Of a DNA stretch of 64,000 nt, positions 29,427 to 38,688 are shown one piece after another. Numbering within the stretch: position 1 is the first letter of the stretch; each line of letters begins with the position of its first letter. Position numbers and translations under genes: made by a program. The notes beneath the pieces were generated by a model. The model saw only the letters and a program-made list of their open reading frames with translations, was not told the DNA's origin and searched no databases. Source of the DNA: Spartinivicinus marinus (lineage in GTDB: Bacteria > Pseudomonadota > Gammaproteobacteria > Pseudomonadales > Zooshikellaceae); contig NZ_JAPJZK010000001.1 of NCBI RefSeq assembly GCF_026309355.1, positions 4,546,501 through 4,610,500 of the forward strand. Reading direction: 5' to 3'.

Positions 29427-30197
29427 ATGTTAACCATTGCAGATAAAACATTTCGGTCTCGGTTATTTACCGGGACTGGCAAATTTAATGATAAAACCAC
29501 CATGGTCGCGGCATTACAGGCTTCAGGTTCTGAATTAGTGACCATGGCTTTAAAACGGGTGGATTTAGATAACCAAACTGATGATATTTTACAGCCATTA
29601 ATGGCGAATGGTATGAATTTATTACCTAATACATCAGGAGCACGCACAGCAAAAGAAGCGGTATTTGCTGCGAAATTAGCAAGGGAAGCGTTGGAAACCA
29701 ACTGGGTAAAATTGGAGATTCACCCAGACCCGCGTTATTTATTGCCAGACCCAATTGAAACCTTAAAAGCAACCGAAATACTAGCAAAAGAAGGTTTTGT
29801 GGTGTTGCCGTATATTCATGCTGACCCAGTATTATGTAAACGCTTGGAAGAAGTGGGCACGGCTGCGGTGATGCCATTGGGATCGCCGATAGGCTCTAAT
29901 AAAGGGTTAAAAACCCAGGAATTCCTGGAGATTATTATTGAGCAGTCAAAAGTGCCGGTTATTGTGGATGCCGGTTTAGGCGCACCCAGTCATGCAGCTG
30001 CGGCTATGGAAATGGGAGCAGATGCCGTATTAGTGAATACGGCGATGGCTGTGGCTGCTGATCCAGTCGTCATGAGTCGTGCTTTTGCTTTAGCAGTGGA
30101 AGCAGGGCGAATGGCGTTTGAATCAGGGTTGGCTAGCCAGCAATCACAAGCCGTTGCTTCAAGCCCATTAACGGCATTTTTAGAGGATGCCGTATGA
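29427..30197 (+). CDS. thiG: thiazole synthase ThiG
   Basis: 256 residues. ThiG builds the thiazole phosphate ring from deoxyxylulose phosphate, dehydroglycine and ThiS-thiocarboxylate. The Schiff-base lysine is K95 in [10 protein letters not shown], and the phosphate-binding [20 protein letters not shown] region is intact. The stop overlaps the thiH start by four bases. Forms a complex with ThiH in organisms that use ThiH. Confidence 0.95.
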
Positions 30198-31312
30198 GTT
30201 TTAACGAACGGTTGCAACAAATAAACTGGGATGACAGCCGACTCGCTATCATGAGTAAAACCACGGTTGATGTCGAACGGGCACTATCCCGCCAGCGATT
30301 ATCACTTGATGATTTTCAAGCGCTTATTTCGCCAGCGGCTGAACCGTTTTTGGAACAACTAGCACAACGGAGTATGCAGTTAACCCGCCAGCGGTTTGGC
30401 AATACAATGCAAATGTATATACCGCTGTATTTATCTAATTTGTGTGCAAATATATGCAGCTATTGTGGTTTTTCCATTCATAATAAAATCCGTCGTACCA
30501 CATTAAATAGTGAACAGCTGAATGCTGAAATTGTTGCCATTAAGCGCATGGGGTTTGATCATGTACTCATCGTGACGGGGGAGTCTGAACACCGGGTGGG
30601 TATGGCTTATTTTCGCCAAGTGCTGCCCCAGTTAAAGCAAGCATTTTCCCATATTTCTATGGAAGTGCAGCCATTAGAGCAACATGAATATGAAGAGCTG
30701 ATCGAGTTGGGGGTGGATGCGGTCTTGGTTTACCAGGAAACCTATAACCCTATCACCTATGCAAAACACCATTTAAAAGGAAAAAAGCAAGATTTTCATT
30801 ATCGTATCCATACCACCGATCGGTTAGGGGCAGCAGGTATTCATAAAATAGGCATTGGTGCCTTAATTGGTTTAGAGGATTGGCGTACTGACTGTTATCA
30901 TGTGGCTGTTCATTTAGACTATTTACAACGCACTTATTGGCAAACTAAATATTCGATTTCATTCCCTCGGCTGCGTCCTTGTGCTGGCGAATTTCAACCC
31001 AAGTCAATCATGACCGATCGCCAATTAGTCCAATTAATTTGTGCTTATCGGCTATTTAACCCCGATGTCGAATTATCACTCTCAACTCGAGAATCAGCCC
31101 ATTTTCGAAATAATGTATTACCTTTAGGGATAACCAGTTTAAGTGCAGGTTCCAGCACCCAGCCTGGCGGTTACGCAGAAGAAAGTCAGCAGGCATTGGA
31201 ACAGTTTGAAATATCTGATGAAAGAAGCCCAGCCGTCATGGCTGAAATTATTAAGCAAAAGGGTTTTGAAGTGGTTTGGAAAGATTGGGATAGAAGTTTG
31301 AGTGGTTTATAG
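30194..31312 (+). CDS. thiH: 2-iminoacetate synthase ThiH
   Basis: 372 residues. Radical SAM tyrosine lyase, giving dehydroglycine (2-iminoacetate) and p-cresol for ThiG. The cluster-binding cysteines C84, C88 and C91 lie in CANICSYCG (CxxxCxxC). The start overlaps thiG by four bases. ThiH rather than ThiO implies the tyrosine-dependent, oxygen-sensitive route. No thiE, thiD or thiF is adjacent, so the operon is the CSGH subset. An imperfect hairpin at 31311-31336 overlaps the stop codon but has no U-tract. Confidence 0.95.
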
Positions 31313-31757: not shown

Positions 31758-32754
31758 ACGCGATGCTCGACTTTTAATAACTTGAAATGACAAACCCTAA
31801 CCCCATCCTAAGTTTGCGAAAACAGGGATATCAAGGAAAGGGAATGTCACTGGAAGAGTTTATCATAACTACTTATTGTTGGGTCGATGATGTTTTAACT
31901 GATTTATTAAAACAACGGCGATTACGTCAGCGAGGAATTAAGCCCTCACTGTCGGATGCAGAAGTCATTACCATGGAGTTAATTGGTGAATTTCAAGGCC
32001 TTGATGCTGATACCGCTATCTGGAAATACTTCAAAGAGCATTGGAAAGCGTATTTTCCAGGCATAGGCTCAAGAAGCCAGTTTGCTAAACAAGCTGCTAA
32101 TTTATGGGCGATAAAACAACAATTACAAAAGCAAGTAACAGCTGAGCTGGGTACTATTAATGATCCTATACATGTTGTCGATGGTTTTCCTTTGCCTGTT
32201 AGCCACTTTAAACGTGCAAGAAATTGCCGCCGCTTTAAAGAAGAGGCTGAGTATGGCTATTGTGCATCCAAGGGGGAAACCTATTATGGCTTTGAAGGGC
32301 ACCTCATTATTGACTTTCATGGAGCCATAGCAGGATTTACATTAACCCCAGCAAGTGATGGCGAAAGGGAAGCTGTATGGGAGTTAACAGAAGGTATGCC
32401 GTCAGGCATGTTGTTAGGGGATAAAGGTTATTTGGGGGCTGAATTTAAAGCTGAATTGTTAGAGTTAAAATCGCTTCAGCTAGAAACCCCGGTTAGAGAT
32501 AACATGATTGATCCTTTACCCAAGTCCTGGAGGAGCCAGCTTAATCGGTTACGACGACGAGTTGAGACAACCATTGGTCAGCTAGTAGAAAGGTTTAATA
32601 TTCAGCGGACCAAAGGCAGAACCCTGTGGAGTTTGACTAATCGAATGACCCGCAAGCTGTTATCGCACAGCTTATGTGTATTATTTAATAGGAACCAAGG
32701 CAATGCTCCACTACAGTTATCTAAATTAATAGGCTGAAAAGTCGAGCATTGCGT
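31758..32754 (+). mobile_element. IS982-family insertion sequence, intact, 997 bp
   Basis: Terminal inverted repeats ACGCGATGCTCGACTTTT (31758-31775) and the complement of AAAAGTCGAGCATTGCGT (32737-32754) match at 17 of 18 positions. It is flanked by the direct duplication GAATATA (31751-31757 and 32755-32761). It carries one full transposase gene. The near-perfect ends and duplication indicate recent insertion. Confidence 0.92.
31787..32737 (+). CDS. IS982-family transposase
   Basis: 316 residues with an intact DDE set: D in VVDGFPLP, D in LGDKGYLG and E in RRRVETTIGQL. It also has the IS982-typical LSDAEVITMELIGEF N-terminal motif. It lies wholly within the inverted repeats and shows no frameshift or stop, so the element is potentially active. 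It probably uses a cut-and-paste type DDE mechanism and gives a 6-9 bp duplication, as seen here. Confidence 0.93.
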   Translation: MTNPNPILSLRKQGYQGKGMSLEEFIITTYCWVDDVLTDLLKQRRLRQRGIKPSLSDAEVITMELIGEFQGLDADTAIWKYFKEHWKAYFPGIGSRSQFAKQAANLWAIKQQLQKQVTAELGTINDPIHVVDGFPLPVSHFKRARNCRRFKEEAEYGYCASKGETYYGFEGHLIIDFHGAIAGFTLTPASDGEREAVWELTEGMPSGMLLGDKGYLGAEFKAELLELKSLQLETPVRDNMIDPLPKSWRSQLNRLRRRVETTIGQLVERFNIQRTKGRTLWSLTNRMTRKLLSHSLCVLFNRNQGNAPLQLSKLIG

Positions 32755-34123
32755 GAATATAGGATGAAATCATCACCATAGGTACTCGAACCCCCAGTCG
32801 CTTAAAATCAAAACCTAACTGTCCGTCACATTCATCAGGCGCTACCGTGTTGGGTGGTGGGACATGATCAAAGCAACCTCCATGTTCATCATGAGTAATT
32901 ACGAGCAATACTTTATCTTTGTAAGCACTGTTTTTAACTGCTGTGTAAACTTGCCAAATAAGTTCTTCCCCTAACAGTACCGTACCTAAATGGGTTCTTT
33001 CATCTGATCCAAAACTATGAGGTACTTTAGCTGCTGATGGATGTTGGTCATTATGTTGCCCAAAATAGTTGGGTTCTAGAAAAGAGTATTGAGGCAAACA
33101 CCCATTACCTAAATCTTGATAAAATTTTTCAATAGGGTTTAATTTTTTAGCTTTTTTACAGTAAAAACCATGGATGAAATAAGTTAAGCTAAAAGTAAAC
33201 TTGGTATTGCCACTTTCGCTTAATGGTAGTTGGTGGGCATAAACACGCCAAGAAATTTTGTTATCATCTAACCGGTCAAACAAAGTGGGTTTTGTCCATA
33301 CCTGTCTGCTCCATTCTTCAAAAGAGGTATAGTGTTTAGTTTTTGATATTGTATTCGAGAACTGAGTGGAGGTGACAGTTGTTGTAGTGGTCGTTGTAGA
33401 ATAAGCCGTTGTGATGGTGGAGGTTGTTGTATTAGTTGTTGTTTGAGGGTGGTTGGTAGTTGCTGGTATTGTATCTTGATGTTGGTTTTTAGCTGATATG
33501 ACTGTTGGATTTAGTACCAGCCCGCCAGAGCTAGCAGCATGCCAAAAAGCTCTATTACACCAAGTTTGGCTAGGCACAGAGCTATGCCAGTGATCAAAAA
33601 CTGAAAATTCTTTAGCAAGTGTTGCCAATACATTAACTTGTTTAGGCGTAAAACACTGCATAATAACTTTATAGTCATTATAGGTAGGTAATGGTTGATA
33701 CTCACACTGTACTTGTAGGGTATTGATATAATCATTAACAAACCCTTTCATTGACGGAGTTGAATGGCTAGAAGGTAAGTTGAAAGGCGGTTGCATTACC
33801 TCTTCTGTTACACCAATATTCTCTTCATTAATATGATTGTACAATTGGGTATTAACATGTTGATATACTTCACCTGGGTCAGGAAATGGTTGGTGGTAGG
33901 CAACGGAGTCATTTATTTCGGTATAAAAGTCAACAGACTGATAACAGCCATTAGCTGCTCTTGATGGAATAGGATTTGAAAAATGAATGTCTTGTAAGCC
34001 AGAAAACTGCTTATCCCGAGGTACGCCTTCTTGATACAACAAACCCAATAAATTATCAAATGACCTGTTTTCTAGCATTAAAACCACAACATGGTCAAAA
34101 CAATCTAGTGGATAGCGGTCCAT

Positions 34124-34590: not shown

Positions 34591-36861
34591 ATGGACGCAG
34601 AAAAAAATAAAAACGCAACTGCACTTAAAAAGCGTGATCCTAAATATGTCAATACGGATATTTCAGCTGTAAAAGCACTAGTTCAAGCTGCTGTTAATGT
34701 AGAACTTTTTACAATTCCCCTTTATATGACAACCCTTTACTCAATTAAAGGGATGCATGAAATTAATTCTAATAATGAGCTTTATTTAGGCTATCGATGG
34801 CCAGGTTCTGCACCGGTAGCAAAGCCAATTACTGAGAATGAAAAAGCATTTAATACTATCTATAGTGTCTTTATCGATGAGATGCTGCATTTACAATTAG
34901 CCGCAAATATAGCCAGCAGCGTGGGTGTTGCACCCACATTTACCAGTAAAGAATTGCAGAATGAAAACGCTGGTTGGATTTGCTATGGTGACGATAAAAC
35001 AACTATTCCTCATATTTTAGATTTGCGTGATACTAAGCATTATAGCCATGTAAAAGTGAGGCTGGGAGCAGTGGATGAGAATCAGTTAGATCTGTTTTTG
35101 GCAATAGAAGAGCCTTCAGATGTTGCTGAAGAAGAGCTGGGTACAGATAAACACTTTAAAAATTGCCAGATTAAATACGAATTGTGCCGTGATAAGTATT
35201 TTCCTTCAGTCCCCTTTAAAGGCTGGCAAGAAGATTATAATGAGAGTAACCTACCATTGTTTGGCTCCATTGGTTATATGTATAAGTGTTTAACTCAATA
35301 CCTTGAGATTAGGTACAGCGATAATACAACCCTTTGGGAGGCCCTTTATCAGCCAGTTTCTATGCAACGTGACCAGTTTAATGCGGTGGATAGTGGACAC
35401 CCATATGAGGAATACCCTAAATTTGATGCAACTGTTAAGAATAAAACTAAGGACAGTGCAAAGCATACAGCAGAAGTGGCTAAGAAAAAAGTCTTTACCA
35501 TGATTAATGCGATTACTGATCAAGGTGAAGGTAGTACAGTTGCACCTTCCTTAGACTTTCTTACCACTACAGCAAAAAATATAGTTGAACGGCTTATTCG
35601 CAAAGCGCAGACAAATGGTCATTTGAAAGAAAAACTGGAAGAAATATTGGCTTTTATTAATAATGAGCCTAACGCCAAACACCCCAAAGCAGAAGGTGAA
35701 GATACCAATCTGTTAGATATAAAAAATATTCGCGCTTTAGTTTTTAGTCATTTAGAAAAAGAACAGAATAAGTCAGATCGAGACTTAATGTTAGCCTTAA
35801 AAACTATACCCTTAGAAGATCACTTATTGAAAATTCAGCACTTAAGAAGTGTTAAAGTTAGGTATCGCCCTGATAAGCTGGCATTAGAAAAAGATTATCC
35901 AAACTATTCAGCTAAAGGTCAGTTAGAGTACAATCATAGTAATATTGCCGCAGCACGTGCTGATAATGGTATGAATGACCATTATGAACGATTTATCGAG
36001 GTTAAAAGTAAACTTGGTCAAATTGTGACTTGGGAAAAGTGGCATACTGATCCAGAGCACCACTGGACAGCAGATGATTTAAAAACTGAATATTATGGTT
36101 GTAATAAATATCAAGAGGTTCTACCTGATCCAAATGATATTGCTTGTGCATTAAATAACCTCAAGTTAGAAGGTCGGGAATCAAATTACCAGTTGTTCAG
36201 TCAAACAGCGGCAGGTTCTATCTACGGTATTACAAGTGTATTAAATCAATATTGGCAAAACCCAAATACGGAGTTTCCTTCACCCTCAATGTTTGGTTCA
36301 GGCGATCGAGTCTCTATTTGTTGGGCTATATTTGGCAAAGCCCCTGATTTGTCACTGGGTATTGAAAAGGTTAAATCAGGTCAAATGTATCATGCGTGCC
36401 AAGGACTTAGTTATACTGGAGAGGAAACCCAAAGCTGTGCTTCTAAAGCTGTTTATCATAGCTGTAAGGGCTCTAATCAATGTAAAGGACAAGGTGGTTG
36501 TGGTTTTGTCCATAGTGTGAGTGGTGGTGGAAATTGCTCAAACAGTGGAAATACAAGCGCTGACTCGGGGCTTTATACTGCACCTGGCAATAATTTTTGT
36601 GGGGGCTTTGGTGGTTGTGCGGTGCCGATGTCTGCTGCACAGCTTTATCCTTGTAGTGGTGAAATGCAGGTATATAAATTTACTGGGTCTGATTGTACGT
36701 CTGATCCAGTGGATGGTCATATTGAGTTTAAAGAAGGTGACTCTGTTTACCAAATTGCCTGGAAGGCATATTGTAAGTCACTTGAAGCCAGTGGAAAATC
36801 ATCACCAAGCTCGCCACCAGCTGTTAGTGATTTACGCTTAGCATTTCCTCCTTCCACATGA
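34591..36861 (+). CDS. ferritin-like (VioB-type) protein with cysteine-rich C-terminal tail
   Basis: 756 residues. Residues ~22-290 match the ferritin-like domain of VioB/RebD-type proteins, with likely di-iron ligands E38, E97 and H100 (DEMLHLQ). The middle (~290-590) is uncharacterised. Residues 603-728 hold eleven cysteines (603, 616, 625, 631, 637, 649, 670, 676, 688, 702, 728) in a Gly/Ser-rich context. Among them are the C-x5-C-x5-C run CKGSNQCKGQGGC and CGGFGGC. CKGxxxCKGxGxC patterns are typical of the substrates of MNIO enzymes, and an MNIO gene follows with an ATGA overlap. I infer that the tail is the modification target. No signal peptide. AAGGA lies ten bases before ATG. Confidence 0.8.
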   Translation: MDAEKNKNATALKKRDPKYVNTDISAVKALVQAAVNVELFTIPLYMTTLYSIKGMHEINSNNELYLGYRWPGSAPVAKPITENEKAFNTIYSVFIDEMLHLQLAANIASSVGVAPTFTSKELQNENAGWICYGDDKTTIPHILDLRDTKHYSHVKVRLGAVDENQLDLFLAIEEPSDVAEEELGTDKHFKNCQIKYELCRDKYFPSVPFKGWQEDYNESNLPLFGSIGYMYKCLTQYLEIRYSDNTTLWEALYQPVSMQRDQFNAVDSGHPYEEYPKFDATVKNKTKDSAKHTAEVAKKKVFTMINAITDQGEGSTVAPSLDFLTTTAKNIVERLIRKAQTNGHLKEKLEEILAFINNEPNAKHPKAEGEDTNLLDIKNIRALVFSHLEKEQNKSDRDLMLALKTIPLEDHLLKIQHLRSVKVRYRPDKLALEKDYPNYSAKGQLEYNHSNIAAARADNGMNDHYERFIEVKSKLGQIVTWEKWHTDPEHHWTADDLKTEYYGCNKYQEVLPDPNDIACALNNLKLEGRESNYQLFSQTAAGSIYGITSVLNQYWQNPNTEFPSPSMFGSGDRVSICWAIFGKAPDLSLGIEKVKSGQMYHACQGLSYTGEETQSCASKAVYHSCKGSNQCKGQGGCGFVHSVSGGGNCSNSGNTSADSGLYTAPGNNFCGGFGGCAVPMSAAQLYPCSGEMQVYKFTGSDCTSDPVDGHIEFKEGDSVYQIAWKAYCKSLEASGKSSPSSPPAVSDLRLAFPPST

Positions 36862-37805
36862 TAAGTAAACAACAATCCTGCAAAAGGCGCCTGGGTCTGA
36901 CTCATTTAGGCTTAGGCGTCGGGCTTAGAAATCAGCACTTTCCCCATCTAATGCAAAATGAACCGCAGGTTGATTGGTTTGAAATTATCAGTGAAAACTT
37001 TATCGATAATTATGGCTATGATCGGTATGTGTTAAATTCGCTTAGAGAGAAAGTACCGATTGTTATGCATGGGGTTTCGCTATCAATTGGTAGTAGTGAT
37101 CCTTTAGATAGGGACTATCTGAATAAGTTAAAGCAACTGGCTGATGAGATACAAGTCCAATGGGTTTCTGATCATTTATGCTGGACAGGTATTGCCGGTA
37201 TCAATACCCACGACCTGTTGCCTATACCGTTAACTGAAGAGTCATTGCTGTATGTAGCAGAGCGTGTTAGGCAAGTACAAGACTTTCTTGAACGCCCCCT
37301 TATTCTGGAAAACCCAAGTACTTATGTACAGTTTACACAGTCTACATTAACAGAGTGGGAGTTTCTTAGTGAGCTAACGGCATTGACGGCCTGTGGCTTA
37401 CTGTTAGATGTCAACAATGTTTTTGTGTCTGCCTATAATCATAGGTTTGATCCATGGGTTTATATTGAAAATTTACCCCATGAGAACATTGTTCAAGTGC
37501 ATTTAGCAGGCCCAACAAAGAATGGTGATTGTTTAATCGATACCCATGATCAACCTGTCCCTACAGAGGTTTGGCTTCTTTATCAGCGTGTGCATCATCT
37601 GACAGGAGGCGTTTCTACCTTATTAGAGTGGGATGCTAATATACCCGATTACCCTCAATTAACAGAGGAAGTATTTAAAGCGAAACAAGTGATTAATGGG
37701 CAAATACCCAATACAGCTGTTTTTGAATCAACACAGCAGATGATTTCAAACCCAATTAACTTTCAGTTAGGTAGCTCAGGTGAGTCAGTTAAAATTAATC
37801 AGTGA
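36858..37805 (+). CDS. DUF692 multinuclear non-heme iron oxidase (MNIO)
   Basis: 315 residues, TIM-barrel-like DUF692 family (MbnB, TglH, ChrH, BufB relatives). Likely metal ligands are visible: H71 (MHG), H106 (SDH), H118-D119 (THDLLP), E151 (LENP), D184/N187 (DVNNVF), H215 (VHLAG), D228/H230 and E257 (LLEWD). These enzymes use two or three irons and O2 to oxidise cysteine residues of peptides, giving oxazolone/thioamide, thiooxazole or related groups. Start overlaps the ferritin-like gene by ATGA and the DUF2063 gene overlaps its end by 26 bases. Cytoplasmic. Confidence 0.92.
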   Translation: MISKQQSCKRRLGLTHLGLGVGLRNQHFPHLMQNEPQVDWFEIISENFIDNYGYDRYVLNSLREKVPIVMHGVSLSIGSSDPLDRDYLNKLKQLADEIQVQWVSDHLCWTGIAGINTHDLLPIPLTEESLLYVAERVRQVQDFLERPLILENPSTYVQFTQSTLTEWEFLSELTALTACGLLLDVNNVFVSAYNHRFDPWVYIENLPHENIVQVHLAGPTKNGDCLIDTHDQPVPTEVWLLYQRVHHLTGGVSTLLEWDANIPDYPQLTEEVFKAKQVINGQIPNTAVFESTQQMISNPINFQLGSSGESVKINQ

Positions 37806-38688
37806 ATCTTGTAATCAGCAAGGGGGATGGGACGGTGGAAGTTCAGTCAAGATCTGCCTCAGCAGACACCAGCAATGGTTTCAAGCAGTAACAACCCATA
37901 AAAGTGGGCTTTACTATGGATTACAAGCTGCGGAACAAGAGTATGACTTAACTGCTGAGCAAATGATTGTGGAAGGTCATATAGGCAGCAAGCCTCGTTT
38001 AGCTATTTATGCAAATGGCTATGTAGCCAGGCTGCTAGAGTGCTTACGAGCTGATTACTCTGCATTATGCACAATGCTAGGCCAACCACTGTTTGACACG
38101 TTTGCTCGTGCTTATATTATGGAAACACCTTCCAGTTCTTTTACATTGTTTGAGTTAGGTAAAGGCTTTTCTGATTTTTTAGCACGTACACGACCCCATG
38201 GAGATGATATTTCCCCTGAGCTTGAAAAACAGTTATTACTACCGATTGAGCTGGCTAAACTGGAACGACAGCGTGTGGAGCTGATACGGTGTGTTGGCCA
38301 TGAAAATGACACAAACATTTACGTTGATCTTGATATATTGCCTGTTATTGATAACTCATCTGTAGCTTTATCTAAGACAGCGCGATTGGGGTGTTATTCA
38401 TTTCCACTGGCTGAATATTTACAAAAACTAGACTCTAATCAGTCAGCTAATTTACCTGAGCCAAAAGCAGAGCATCTTATTCTTTACCGGAACAATTATC
38501 GAGTTAAAGTAGAGTCAATCACAAACTGGCAATATGAGTTTTTATTAGCTTGTAAGAATACAACATCAATTAATCAAGCTATTAAAGTGACAGCTAACAG
38601 ATGTGGTATAACCTATCAGTCATTATTAACTGATATTTACCTATGGTTACCACAAGCTTTGCTACAGGGGATATTATACTTATCATGA
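37780..38688 (+). CDS. DUF2063 partner protein of the MNIO enzyme
   Basis: 302 residues from GTG 37780, overlapping the DUF692 gene by 26 bases. The DUF2063 (putative DNA-binding domain) pattern is present: RLAIYANGYVARLLECLRAD, SALCTMLG and FARAYIMETPSSSFTLFELG. In RiPP systems (MbnC, BufC, TglI relatives) such proteins recruit the leader or substrate for the MNIO enzyme. The N-terminal ~25 residues are unusual and polar, with one Cys. The C-terminus (GILYLS) and stop fall in the 5' end of a dispersed repeat (TATACTTATCATGAATCATT), so a few native residues may be lost. Confidence 0.87.
   Translation: MSQLKLISESCNQQGGWDGGSSVKICLSRHQQWFQAVTTHKSGLYYGLQAAEQEYDLTAEQMIVEGHIGSKPRLAIYANGYVARLLECLRADYSALCTMLGQPLFDTFARAYIMETPSSSFTLFELGKGFSDFLARTRPHGDDISPELEKQLLLPIELAKLERQRVELIRCVGHENDTNIYVDLDILPVIDNSSVALSKTARLGCYSFPLAEYLQKLDSNQSANLPEPKAEHLILYRNNYRVKVESITNWQYEFLLACKNTTSINQAIKVTANRCGITYQSLLTDIYLWLPQALLQGILYLS

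What the first reader, a model, noticed from the sequence alone, without database searches (positions are those of the whole stretch)
34591..38688. Ferritin-like protein with an 11-Cys tail coupled to MNIO and DUF2063 genes
Seen: three overlapping genes (ATGA and 26-bp overlaps) encode a 756-residue ferritin-like protein with eleven cysteines in its last 155 residues, a DUF692 enzyme with the expected metal ligands, and a DUF2063 partner. Known: MNIO plus DUF2063 pairs modify short Cys-containing precursors (methanobactin, TglH, bufferins). Inference: here the substrate is probably the tail of a large di-iron-type protein, so a non-RiPP-sized protein would carry modified cysteines, perhaps to bind copper or iron next to a redox domain. 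I know of no characterised example with this combination.
Basis: partly seen in the sequence, partly recalled or inferred. Interest (0 to 1): 0.85.

Follow-up and report, generated by a model that had tools for sequence, protein, structure and literature searches.

The report
Ferritin-like protein with bufferin-like tail
A three-gene unit found in several bacterial phyla joins a large ferritin-like protein to a cysteine-rich tail that resembles copper-binding bufferin peptides, next to the kind of enzyme pair that oxidises such cysteines, which suggests that a whole protein rather than a small peptide receives the chemical modification.

Summary
Three overlapping genes encode a 756-aa PF12902 ferritin-like protein with 11 Cys in its last 155 residues, an MNIO enzyme over NCBIfam's bufferin-maturase cut-off, and a DUF2063 partner. 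The same gene order recurs in 79 of 80 fetched relatives from at least six phyla. Six tail cysteines are invariant in 85 of 85 proteins and two nearly so; three of the eleven are not conserved. The tail resembles the BufA2 bufferin profile, though NCBIfam's BufA2 model does not hit it. The linked MNIOs form one clade beside BufB2-type enzymes in the sampled trees. No bufferin-type small precursor was found near the unit. In three other genomes the linked MNIO is the only MNIO, with no DUF2282 or BufA2 precursor. Best reading: the tail is a bufferin-derived domain and the MNIO's own substrate, probably becoming a thiooxazole metal site on a di-metal-type protein. Modification, metal and reaction are untested. 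Bufferin fusions and protein-sized MNIO substrates were already predicted (PMC12452194); I found no ferritin-like case in the papers searched. New variant of a known kind.

The parts
34591..36861 (+). ferritin-like protein with Cys-rich tail, 756 aa; proposed MNIO substrate
   Evidence: ORF; PF12902 86.1 bits; N terminus not hydrophobic (-0.95)
34681..35547 (+). PF12902 ferritin-like domain match (residues 31-319); candidate di-metal ligands E38, E97, H100, E173, E313, and possibly H464 outside the match
   Evidence: E38, E97, H100, E173, E313 in 85/85, H464 in 84/85; ligand role and metal binding inferred
36388..36666 (+). Cys-rich tail domain (residues 600-692) with eight conserved Cys
36397..36498 (+). 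segment (residues 603-636) that aligns with the BufA2 bufferin profile; C603, C616, C625, C631 fall on BufA2 C1, C3, C4, C5
   Evidence: hhalign Prob 85.9, E 5.3e-6, 30 columns; permutation nulls
36847..36858 (+). C-terminal PPST, at the exact C terminus in 82 of 85 homologues; role unknown (recognition tag?)
36858..37805 (+). MNIO (DUF692/PF05114), bufferin-maturase type, 315 aa
   Evidence: PF05114 355.3 bits; NCBIfam BufB 352 bits, cut-off 310; clade
37780..38688 (+). DUF2063 partner protein (PME-type 1), 302 aa, GTG start
   Evidence: PF09836 68.5 bits; 41 of 41 partners scanned match PF09836

Best explanation
The three genes are a self-contained maturation unit. The MNIO and its DUF2063 partner oxidise cysteines in the BufA2-like tail of the ferritin-like protein itself, most likely to 5-thiooxazoles as in bufferins and captophorins, and so build a soft-metal (probably Cu(I)) site on a protein that also carries a di-metal-type ferritin-like centre. 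The protein shows no signal-peptide-like N terminus and probably works in the cytoplasm as a metalloenzyme or metal-handling protein. Shown here by sequence: the genes, the conserved order, the invariant Cys, the tail's likeness to BufA2, the separate MNIO clade, and that no other bufferin-type precursor was found near it. Inferred: modification, its chemistry, the metal, the location and the reaction.
For: Order fer-MNIO-DUF2063 in 79 of 80 loci; in the 80th (L117) the fetched stretch ends with fer. Six tail Cys invariant in 85/85. Tail against BufA2: Prob 85.9, reversed control 0.6; 0 of 200 full column permutations and 1 of 200 with Cys columns fixed reach the score. Linked MNIOs form one clade: 82 rows (81 distinct genes), none of 32 other MNIOs inside, FastTree support 0.757; with 30 of these rows and the same 32 others, SH-aLRT 95, inside a set (98) that adds the four Buf2-linked rows, one Buf1-linked and one untyped. 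Tail profile: 3 of 299 genomes, each time on this protein. In G686, G428 and G278 the linked MNIO is the only PF05114 match, and DUF2282 and BufA2 are absent. The 14 other PF12902 loci of the 398-genome sample show no MNIO in the stretches fetched; 11 were measured and 10 have at most 2 Cys in the last 150 residues. Identity matrices of fer domain and MNIO over 79 loci agree (r 0.82, 0 of 2000 permutations).
Against: No direct evidence of modification. The NCBIfam BufA2 model does not hit the window tail at E up to 10. BufA2 C2 and C6 have no counterpart in the alignment, which covers only 30 columns. The first clade support is moderate (0.757), and the 32 other MNIOs are a capped, best-scoring sample. 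The Asp said to contact substrate Lys in Cys-Lys-type MNIOs is Ala, Gly or Ser here, so target Cys may differ from BufA2. One PF12902 protein without a nearby MNIO (L018) has 6 Cys in its last 150 residues. EGKCG-type precursors were not sought genome-wide. The window's own genome does hold four other bufferin loci. Reported PME-type 1 partners go with signal-peptide precursors (PMC12452194, section 19), which this is not.
Confidence: 0.72

Rival explanations
1. The ferritin-like protein is an enzyme or metal chaperone that acts beside the MNIO pair; its tail cysteines are unmodified and bind a metal or form disulfides, and the MNIO works on bufferins encoded elsewhere in the genome.
For: The window's genome has four other MNIO loci with Buf1 or Buf2 precursors, and G001 and G002 also have several. 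The landscape paper treats adjamnio-II and -III proteins that precede MNIOs as more likely enzymes (PMC12452194, section 17).
Against: G686, G428 and G278 have the linked MNIO alone and neither DUF2282 nor BufA2. The tail resembles BufA2. The MNIO clade is separate, and each of the four bufferin loci of the window's genome has its own MNIO.
Confidence: 0.17
2. A variant of the best explanation: the tail is modified but serves as a cytoplasmic copper store or buffer, and the ferritin-like part is only a scaffold without catalysis.
For: Tail likeness to bufferins, which chelate excess copper (PMC12452194, abstract).
Against: E38, E97, H100, E173 and E313 are invariant in 85/85, and the first four are shared by 11 of 11 and E313 by 10 of 11 PF12902 proteins without a nearby MNIO, which suggests a kept metal centre.
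Confidence: 0.3
3. A variant of the best explanation: the MNIO installs a modification other than 5-thiooxazole.
For: Selectivity position 260 is Ala, Gly or Ser in 82 of 82 linked rows, unlike EGKCG-linked (Phe 8/8) and Buf2-linked (Asp 3/4) enzymes.
Against: All 40 linked MNIOs scanned match the BufB model at E <= 0.001, and the clade lies near Buf2-linked enzymes. PMC13097082 (abstract and passages) argues that MNIO plus PME-type 1 pairs broadly make 5-thiooxazole.
Confidence: 0.2

Closest known systems
BufA2 (Buf2) bufferins with their MNIO and DUF2063 partner
   Same: Gene order precursor-MNIO-DUF2063; tail aligns with part of the BufA2 core; MNIO clade adjoins Buf2-linked MNIOs
   Different: Precursor is 633-1025 aa as mechanically called ORFs, against 51-367 aa reported for Buf2 (PMC12452194, section 14); no signal-peptide-like N terminus; NCBIfam BufA2 model not met; PF12902 domain in front
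Bufferin fusion proteins of Antoine et al. 2025 (Buf1/Cytochrom_C/FGE-sulfatase, MerC/Buf1, MerC/Buf2)
   Same: A bufferin-type domain on a larger protein (PMC12452194, section 14 read)
   Different: Partner domain is PF12902; no signal-peptide-like N terminus; 'ferritin' occurs 0 times in that paper's main text, its supplements were not seen
Captophorins (fontiphorin, oxazolin, gonophorin)
   Same: MNIO plus PME-type 1 pair with Cys substrates (PMC13097082, abstract and sections 13-15)
   Different: No EGKCG repeats in the window; selectivity residue Ala/Gly/Ser, not Phe
PF12902 ferritin-like proteins, including 3hl1
   Same: Same Pfam domain; E38, E97, H100, E173 kept in 11 of 11 and E313 in 10 of 11 relatives; the 3hl1 alignment shows the E38, E97/H100 and E313 motifs
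   Different: 3hl1 is 317 aa against 756 aa here; 14 other PF12902 loci in the sample have no MNIO in the stretches fetched

Membership tests
MNIO, bufferin maturase (BufB, NF050167) | Score over the curated cut-off | tested here: met
   352 bits, cut-off 310; 40 of 40 scanned members match at E <= 0.001, cut-off not shown for each
MNIO, bufferin maturase (BufB, NF050167) | Metal-ligand and catalytic-base positions kept | tested here: met
   H71, H106, E151, D184, H215, D228, H230, E257, D259 in 81/81; ligand roles recalled, the catalytic Asp assigned from PMC13097082 by motif position
PME-type 1 partner (DUF2063) | PF09836 over cut-off | tested here: met
   68.5 bits, cut-off 27.2; 41 of 41 partners scanned match at E <= 0.001
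BufA2 bufferin (NF050166) | NCBIfam model over cut-off | tested here: not met
   window tail no hit at E up to 10; G278 tail E 0.0073, 16.5 bits, under the cut-off of 60; controls L001 87.5 and L002 144.1 bits
BufA2 bufferin (NF050166) | Sec signal peptide | tested here: not met
   window N terminus -0.95; 0 of 85 reach hydropathy 2.0 against 11 of 12 BufA2, top two 1.94 and 1.78 from long mechanical ORF starts; a crude measure, not a signal-peptide predictor
BufA2 bufferin (NF050166) | Profile kinship of the Cys core | tested here: met
   hhalign Prob 85.9, E 5.3e-6 over 30 columns; nulls 0/200 and 1/200; two of six BufA2 Cys have no counterpart
PF12902 ferritin-like | Pfam model over cut-off | tested here: met
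   86.1 bits, cut-off 22.3; 65 of 65 members scanned match at E <= 0.001
Di-metal ferritin-like centre | Glu/His ligands bind two metal ions | not testable with these tools
Captophorin (5-thiooxazole product) | 5-thiooxazole on Cys | not testable with these tools
   needs mass spectrometry and NMR

The most novel reading that the evidence does not exclude
A family of cytoplasmic metalloenzymes spread over several phyla carries an MNIO-made thiooxazole site, built from a captured bufferin domain, as a protein-derived cofactor that works together with a ferritin-like di-metal centre. MNIO chemistry would then serve enzyme maturation, beyond metallophore and natural-product synthesis.
Probability: 0.3. 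Interest if true: 0.9.

Novelty: new variant of a known kind. Interest (0 to 1): 0.74.

Why it matters
The MNIO products described in the papers I read are peptides or Cys-rich precursors, with larger fusions predicted. Here a conserved unit, seen in six named phyla, points to a large ferritin-like protein as the dedicated substrate, with three genomes in which no other MNIO, DUF2282 or BufA2 was detected. It is also an exception to the reported link between signal-peptide precursors and PME-type 1 partners. If the tail is modified, a thiooxazole would be part of a probable redox protein, and the three-gene unit makes this directly testable by co-expression.

Tried and rejected
A single-sequence search of genome contigs found nothing; an alignment query was needed. 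A separate small precursor was sought by Buf1, Buf2 and EGKCG patterns in six frames of 85 related loci (one match, in L066, in a 40-residue frame, judged spurious) and of the whole window (0 matches; the patterns do find the four bufferin loci of this genome). The EGKCG pattern had no positive control there, and unknown precursor types are not covered. The space between fer and MNIO has a median of 16 nt and exceeds 100 nt in 12 of 79 loci; one closed frame with two Cys (21 residues, L062) was seen in these gaps and not pursued. No fourth gene conserved beyond within-genus or common-family clusters was seen among ORFs of 100 aa or more in the 22 largest clusters printed. Other partners for the tail domain: 3 of 299 genomes hit, only this protein, but at most 17 candidates a genome were scored. 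Promoter-like sites 13 against 13.7 in shuffles, terminator-like 4 against 2.9: no signal. One search picked wrong ORFs for some PF12902 controls and was replaced; three partial PF12902 loci (L024-L026) were left out there. PF12902 genes near fungal lodA-like genes (PMC4417212, passages) were not followed. Which Cys are modified stays open: C637 is followed by Gly in 85/85 and C676 by Ala in 84/85, which fits the small-residue preference of FonB (PMC13097082, section 13), but C625 and C631 mostly keep a basic residue after Cys as in BufA2.
Full report
What is there. The window holds three overlapping + strand genes: a 756-aa protein (34591-36861), an MNIO/DUF692 enzyme (36858-37805) and a DUF2063 protein (37780-38688). 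Pfam gives PF12902 Ferritin-like (86.1 bits), PF05114 (355.3 bits) and PF09836 (68.5 bits). NCBIfam places the MNIO in the bufferin maturase family BufB (352 bits, cut-off 310). The first protein has eleven Cys in its last 155 residues.

How far it is conserved. An alignment of four relatives found 152 relatives in genome contigs, of which the tool kept the best 80. In 79 of these 80 an MNIO and a DUF2063 gene (in a few cases cut by the contig end) follow in the same order; in L117 the fetched stretch stops with the first gene. The space between the first stop codon and the MNIO match is -3 to 306 nt, median 16. The 80 comprise 55 Pseudomonadota, 17 Bacteroidota, 3 Actinomycetota, 2 Acidobacteriota, 1 Myxococcota, 1 Ignavibacteriota and 1 unassigned. 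The same order was seen in G001, G002, G428 and G278 and in G686 and G698. The window protein and that of G001 are 89% identical. The unit is uncommon: in an even draw of 398 genomes of the phylum, 17 have PF12902 and 3 of these, the window's own included, have the MNIO alongside. For the other 14 the search covered about 1.5 kb on each side, and stretches of 7.7 to 14.2 kb for six of them.

The tail. In 85 aligned proteins C603, C625, C631, C637, C670 and C676 are Cys in 85 of 85, C649 in 83 and C616 in 79; C688 in 1, C702 in 3 and C728 in 13. An extra Cys between 649 and 670 occurs in 57 of 85 and is absent from the window. The protein ends in PPST in 82 of 85; one of the other three (L117) is cut short. 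A profile of the 85 tails against 14 BufA2 domains gave Prob 85.9 and E 5.3e-6 over 30 columns, putting C603, C616, C625 and C631 on BufA2 C1, C3, C4 and C5; the reversed tail gave Prob 0.6. One further BufA2 sequence seen there (L123) was not added. Of 200 permutations of all columns none reached the score, and of 200 with the Cys columns held in place one did. The curated BufA2 model does not hit the window tail at all, and hits the distant G278 tail below cut-off (E 0.0073, 16.5 bits). So kinship is supported but membership of BufA2 is not met.

The enzyme. MNIOs linked to this protein form one clade: 82 rows (81 distinct genes; L031 and L158 are the same gene) with none of 32 other MNIOs inside, support 0.757. 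The 32 are the four other MNIOs of this genome and 28 of the best-scoring loci, which gives at most 30 loci. A second, quick tree of 62 rows (30 chosen linked rows, the same 32 others) gives SH-aLRT 95 for the clade, and 98 for the set that adds four Buf2-linked, one Buf1-linked and one untyped MNIO; the root is a midpoint, and the tool warns of one long row outside these sets (L005) and of odd composition in five rows. Precursor types were assigned by pattern on upstream ORFs. PMC13097082 (sections 13-15 read) reports a selectivity residue next to the catalytic Asp, Phe in Lys-Cys (EGKCG) and Asp in Cys-Lys enzymes. By motif position this is window residue 260: Phe in 8 of 8 EGKCG-linked, Asp in 3 of 4 Buf2-linked, mixed in 19 Buf1-linked (Ala in 4), and Ala 77, Gly 4, Ser 1 in the linked rows. 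Identity matrices over 79 loci agree between the MNIO and the first protein (r 0.82 for its front part, 0.67 for the tail; 0 of 2000 permutations each), as expected for genes inherited together.

No other substrate found. Patterns for Buf1, Buf2 and EGKCG precursors gave one match, judged spurious, in 85 related loci and none in the window. Of the 80 fetched loci, 7 have under 3 kb before and 8 under 3 kb after the first gene. In G686, G428 and G278 the linked MNIO is the only PF05114 match, and neither DUF2282 nor BufA2 was found; G698 has two MNIOs and neither precursor. G278 is 95%, G686 98% and G428 100% complete. The window's own genome has four further MNIO loci, two with Buf2-type and two with Buf1-type precursors, each with its own MNIO, and G001 and G002 also have further MNIOs and bufferin precursors, so in this genus another substrate cannot be excluded. 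The tail profile hit 3 of 299 genomes, each time on this protein, with at most 17 candidates scored in a genome. Of 11 PF12902 proteins without a nearby MNIO that were measured, ten have 0-2 Cys in their last 150 residues and L018 has 6; no MNIO was found near L018 in 13 kb.

The ferritin-like part. E38, E97, H100, E173 and E313 are invariant in 85 of 85 and H464 is kept in 84. The first four are kept in 11 of 11 other PF12902 proteins and E313 in 10 of 11; position 464 could not be aligned reliably there. The one solved relative found with the alignment at E up to 1 is 3hl1, whose alignment shows the E38, E97/H100 and E313 motifs. A di-metal site is inferred from these residues; no structure could be predicted.

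Export. The window's N terminus has a top 12-residue hydropathy of -0.95. None of 85 proteins reaches 2.0, against 11 of 12 BufA2 sequences (lowest 1.81); the two highest, G278 at 1.94 and L066 at 1.78, come from mechanically long ORF starts. This is a crude test. All 41 partners scanned, G278's included, match PF09836. PMC12452194 (section 19 read) reports that PME-type 1 partners go with signal-peptide precursors and PME-type 2 with signal-less ones, so this unit would be an exception.

Literature. Of PMC12452194 I read the abstract, sections 13, 14, 17, 18, 19 and passages; it predicts protein-sized substrates and reports bufferin fusions with MerC and with cytochrome c and FGE-sulfatase domains, and 'ferritin' does not occur in its main text. 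Its supplements could not be read, and its set of signal-less proteins preceding MNIO genes may well contain this family. Searches for any two of MNIO, DUF692 and ferritin-like, multinuclear non-heme iron with ferritin-like (one spelling only), MNIO with ferritin, captophorin and PF12902 listed no paper that, from its title and the start of its abstract, describes this combination. PMC13097082 was seen in abstract, sections 13-15 and passages, PMC12538549 in abstract and passages, PMC8224329 and PMC4417212 in passages. Subscription journals are mostly outside the library, so prior description cannot be excluded.

Conclusion. Gene order, invariant Cys, tail kinship, the separate enzyme clade and the lack of another bufferin-type substrate in three genomes make the tail the most likely substrate. 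That it becomes a 5-thiooxazole copper site on a di-metal protein is a reasoned inference, to be settled by mass spectrometry and metal analysis.

Noticed in passing
own genome: L001, L002, L004, L005: Four further MNIO loci in the window's genome, two with BufA2-type precursors (one with a doubled Cys domain) and two with DUF2282 precursors.
   Followed up: partly
window 31787-34123: A DDE transposase ORF (PF13612, 70.4 bits) overlaps by 12 bp the end of an opposite-strand PF04185 phosphoesterase ORF with a Thr-rich stretch, whose Pfam match stops at 331 of 356. In G001 neither shows among ORFs of 120 aa or more between the counterpart of the radical-SAM gene (window 30194-31312) and this unit.
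   Followed up: partly
L031 7058-11033: G278 carries a distant version: a PF12902 domain with a higher score (142.8 bits) and a tail that keeps, by eye, a BufA2-like second Cys, followed by MNIO and DUF2063. Among 78 genomes of its order only G250 gave another match, a partial one in a 413-aa frame.
   Followed up: partly
window 36847-36858: The last four residues PPST are at the exact C terminus in 82 of 85 homologues, which could be a recognition or folding signal.
   Followed up: no
L018: A PF12902 protein without a nearby MNIO that has 14 Cys, 6 of them in its last 150 residues.
   Followed up: no
L065, L091, L097: Actinomycetota copies; in the quick tree the two sampled MNIOs (L065, L097) group with Pseudomonadota rows, which suggests transfer between phyla.
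   Followed up: no
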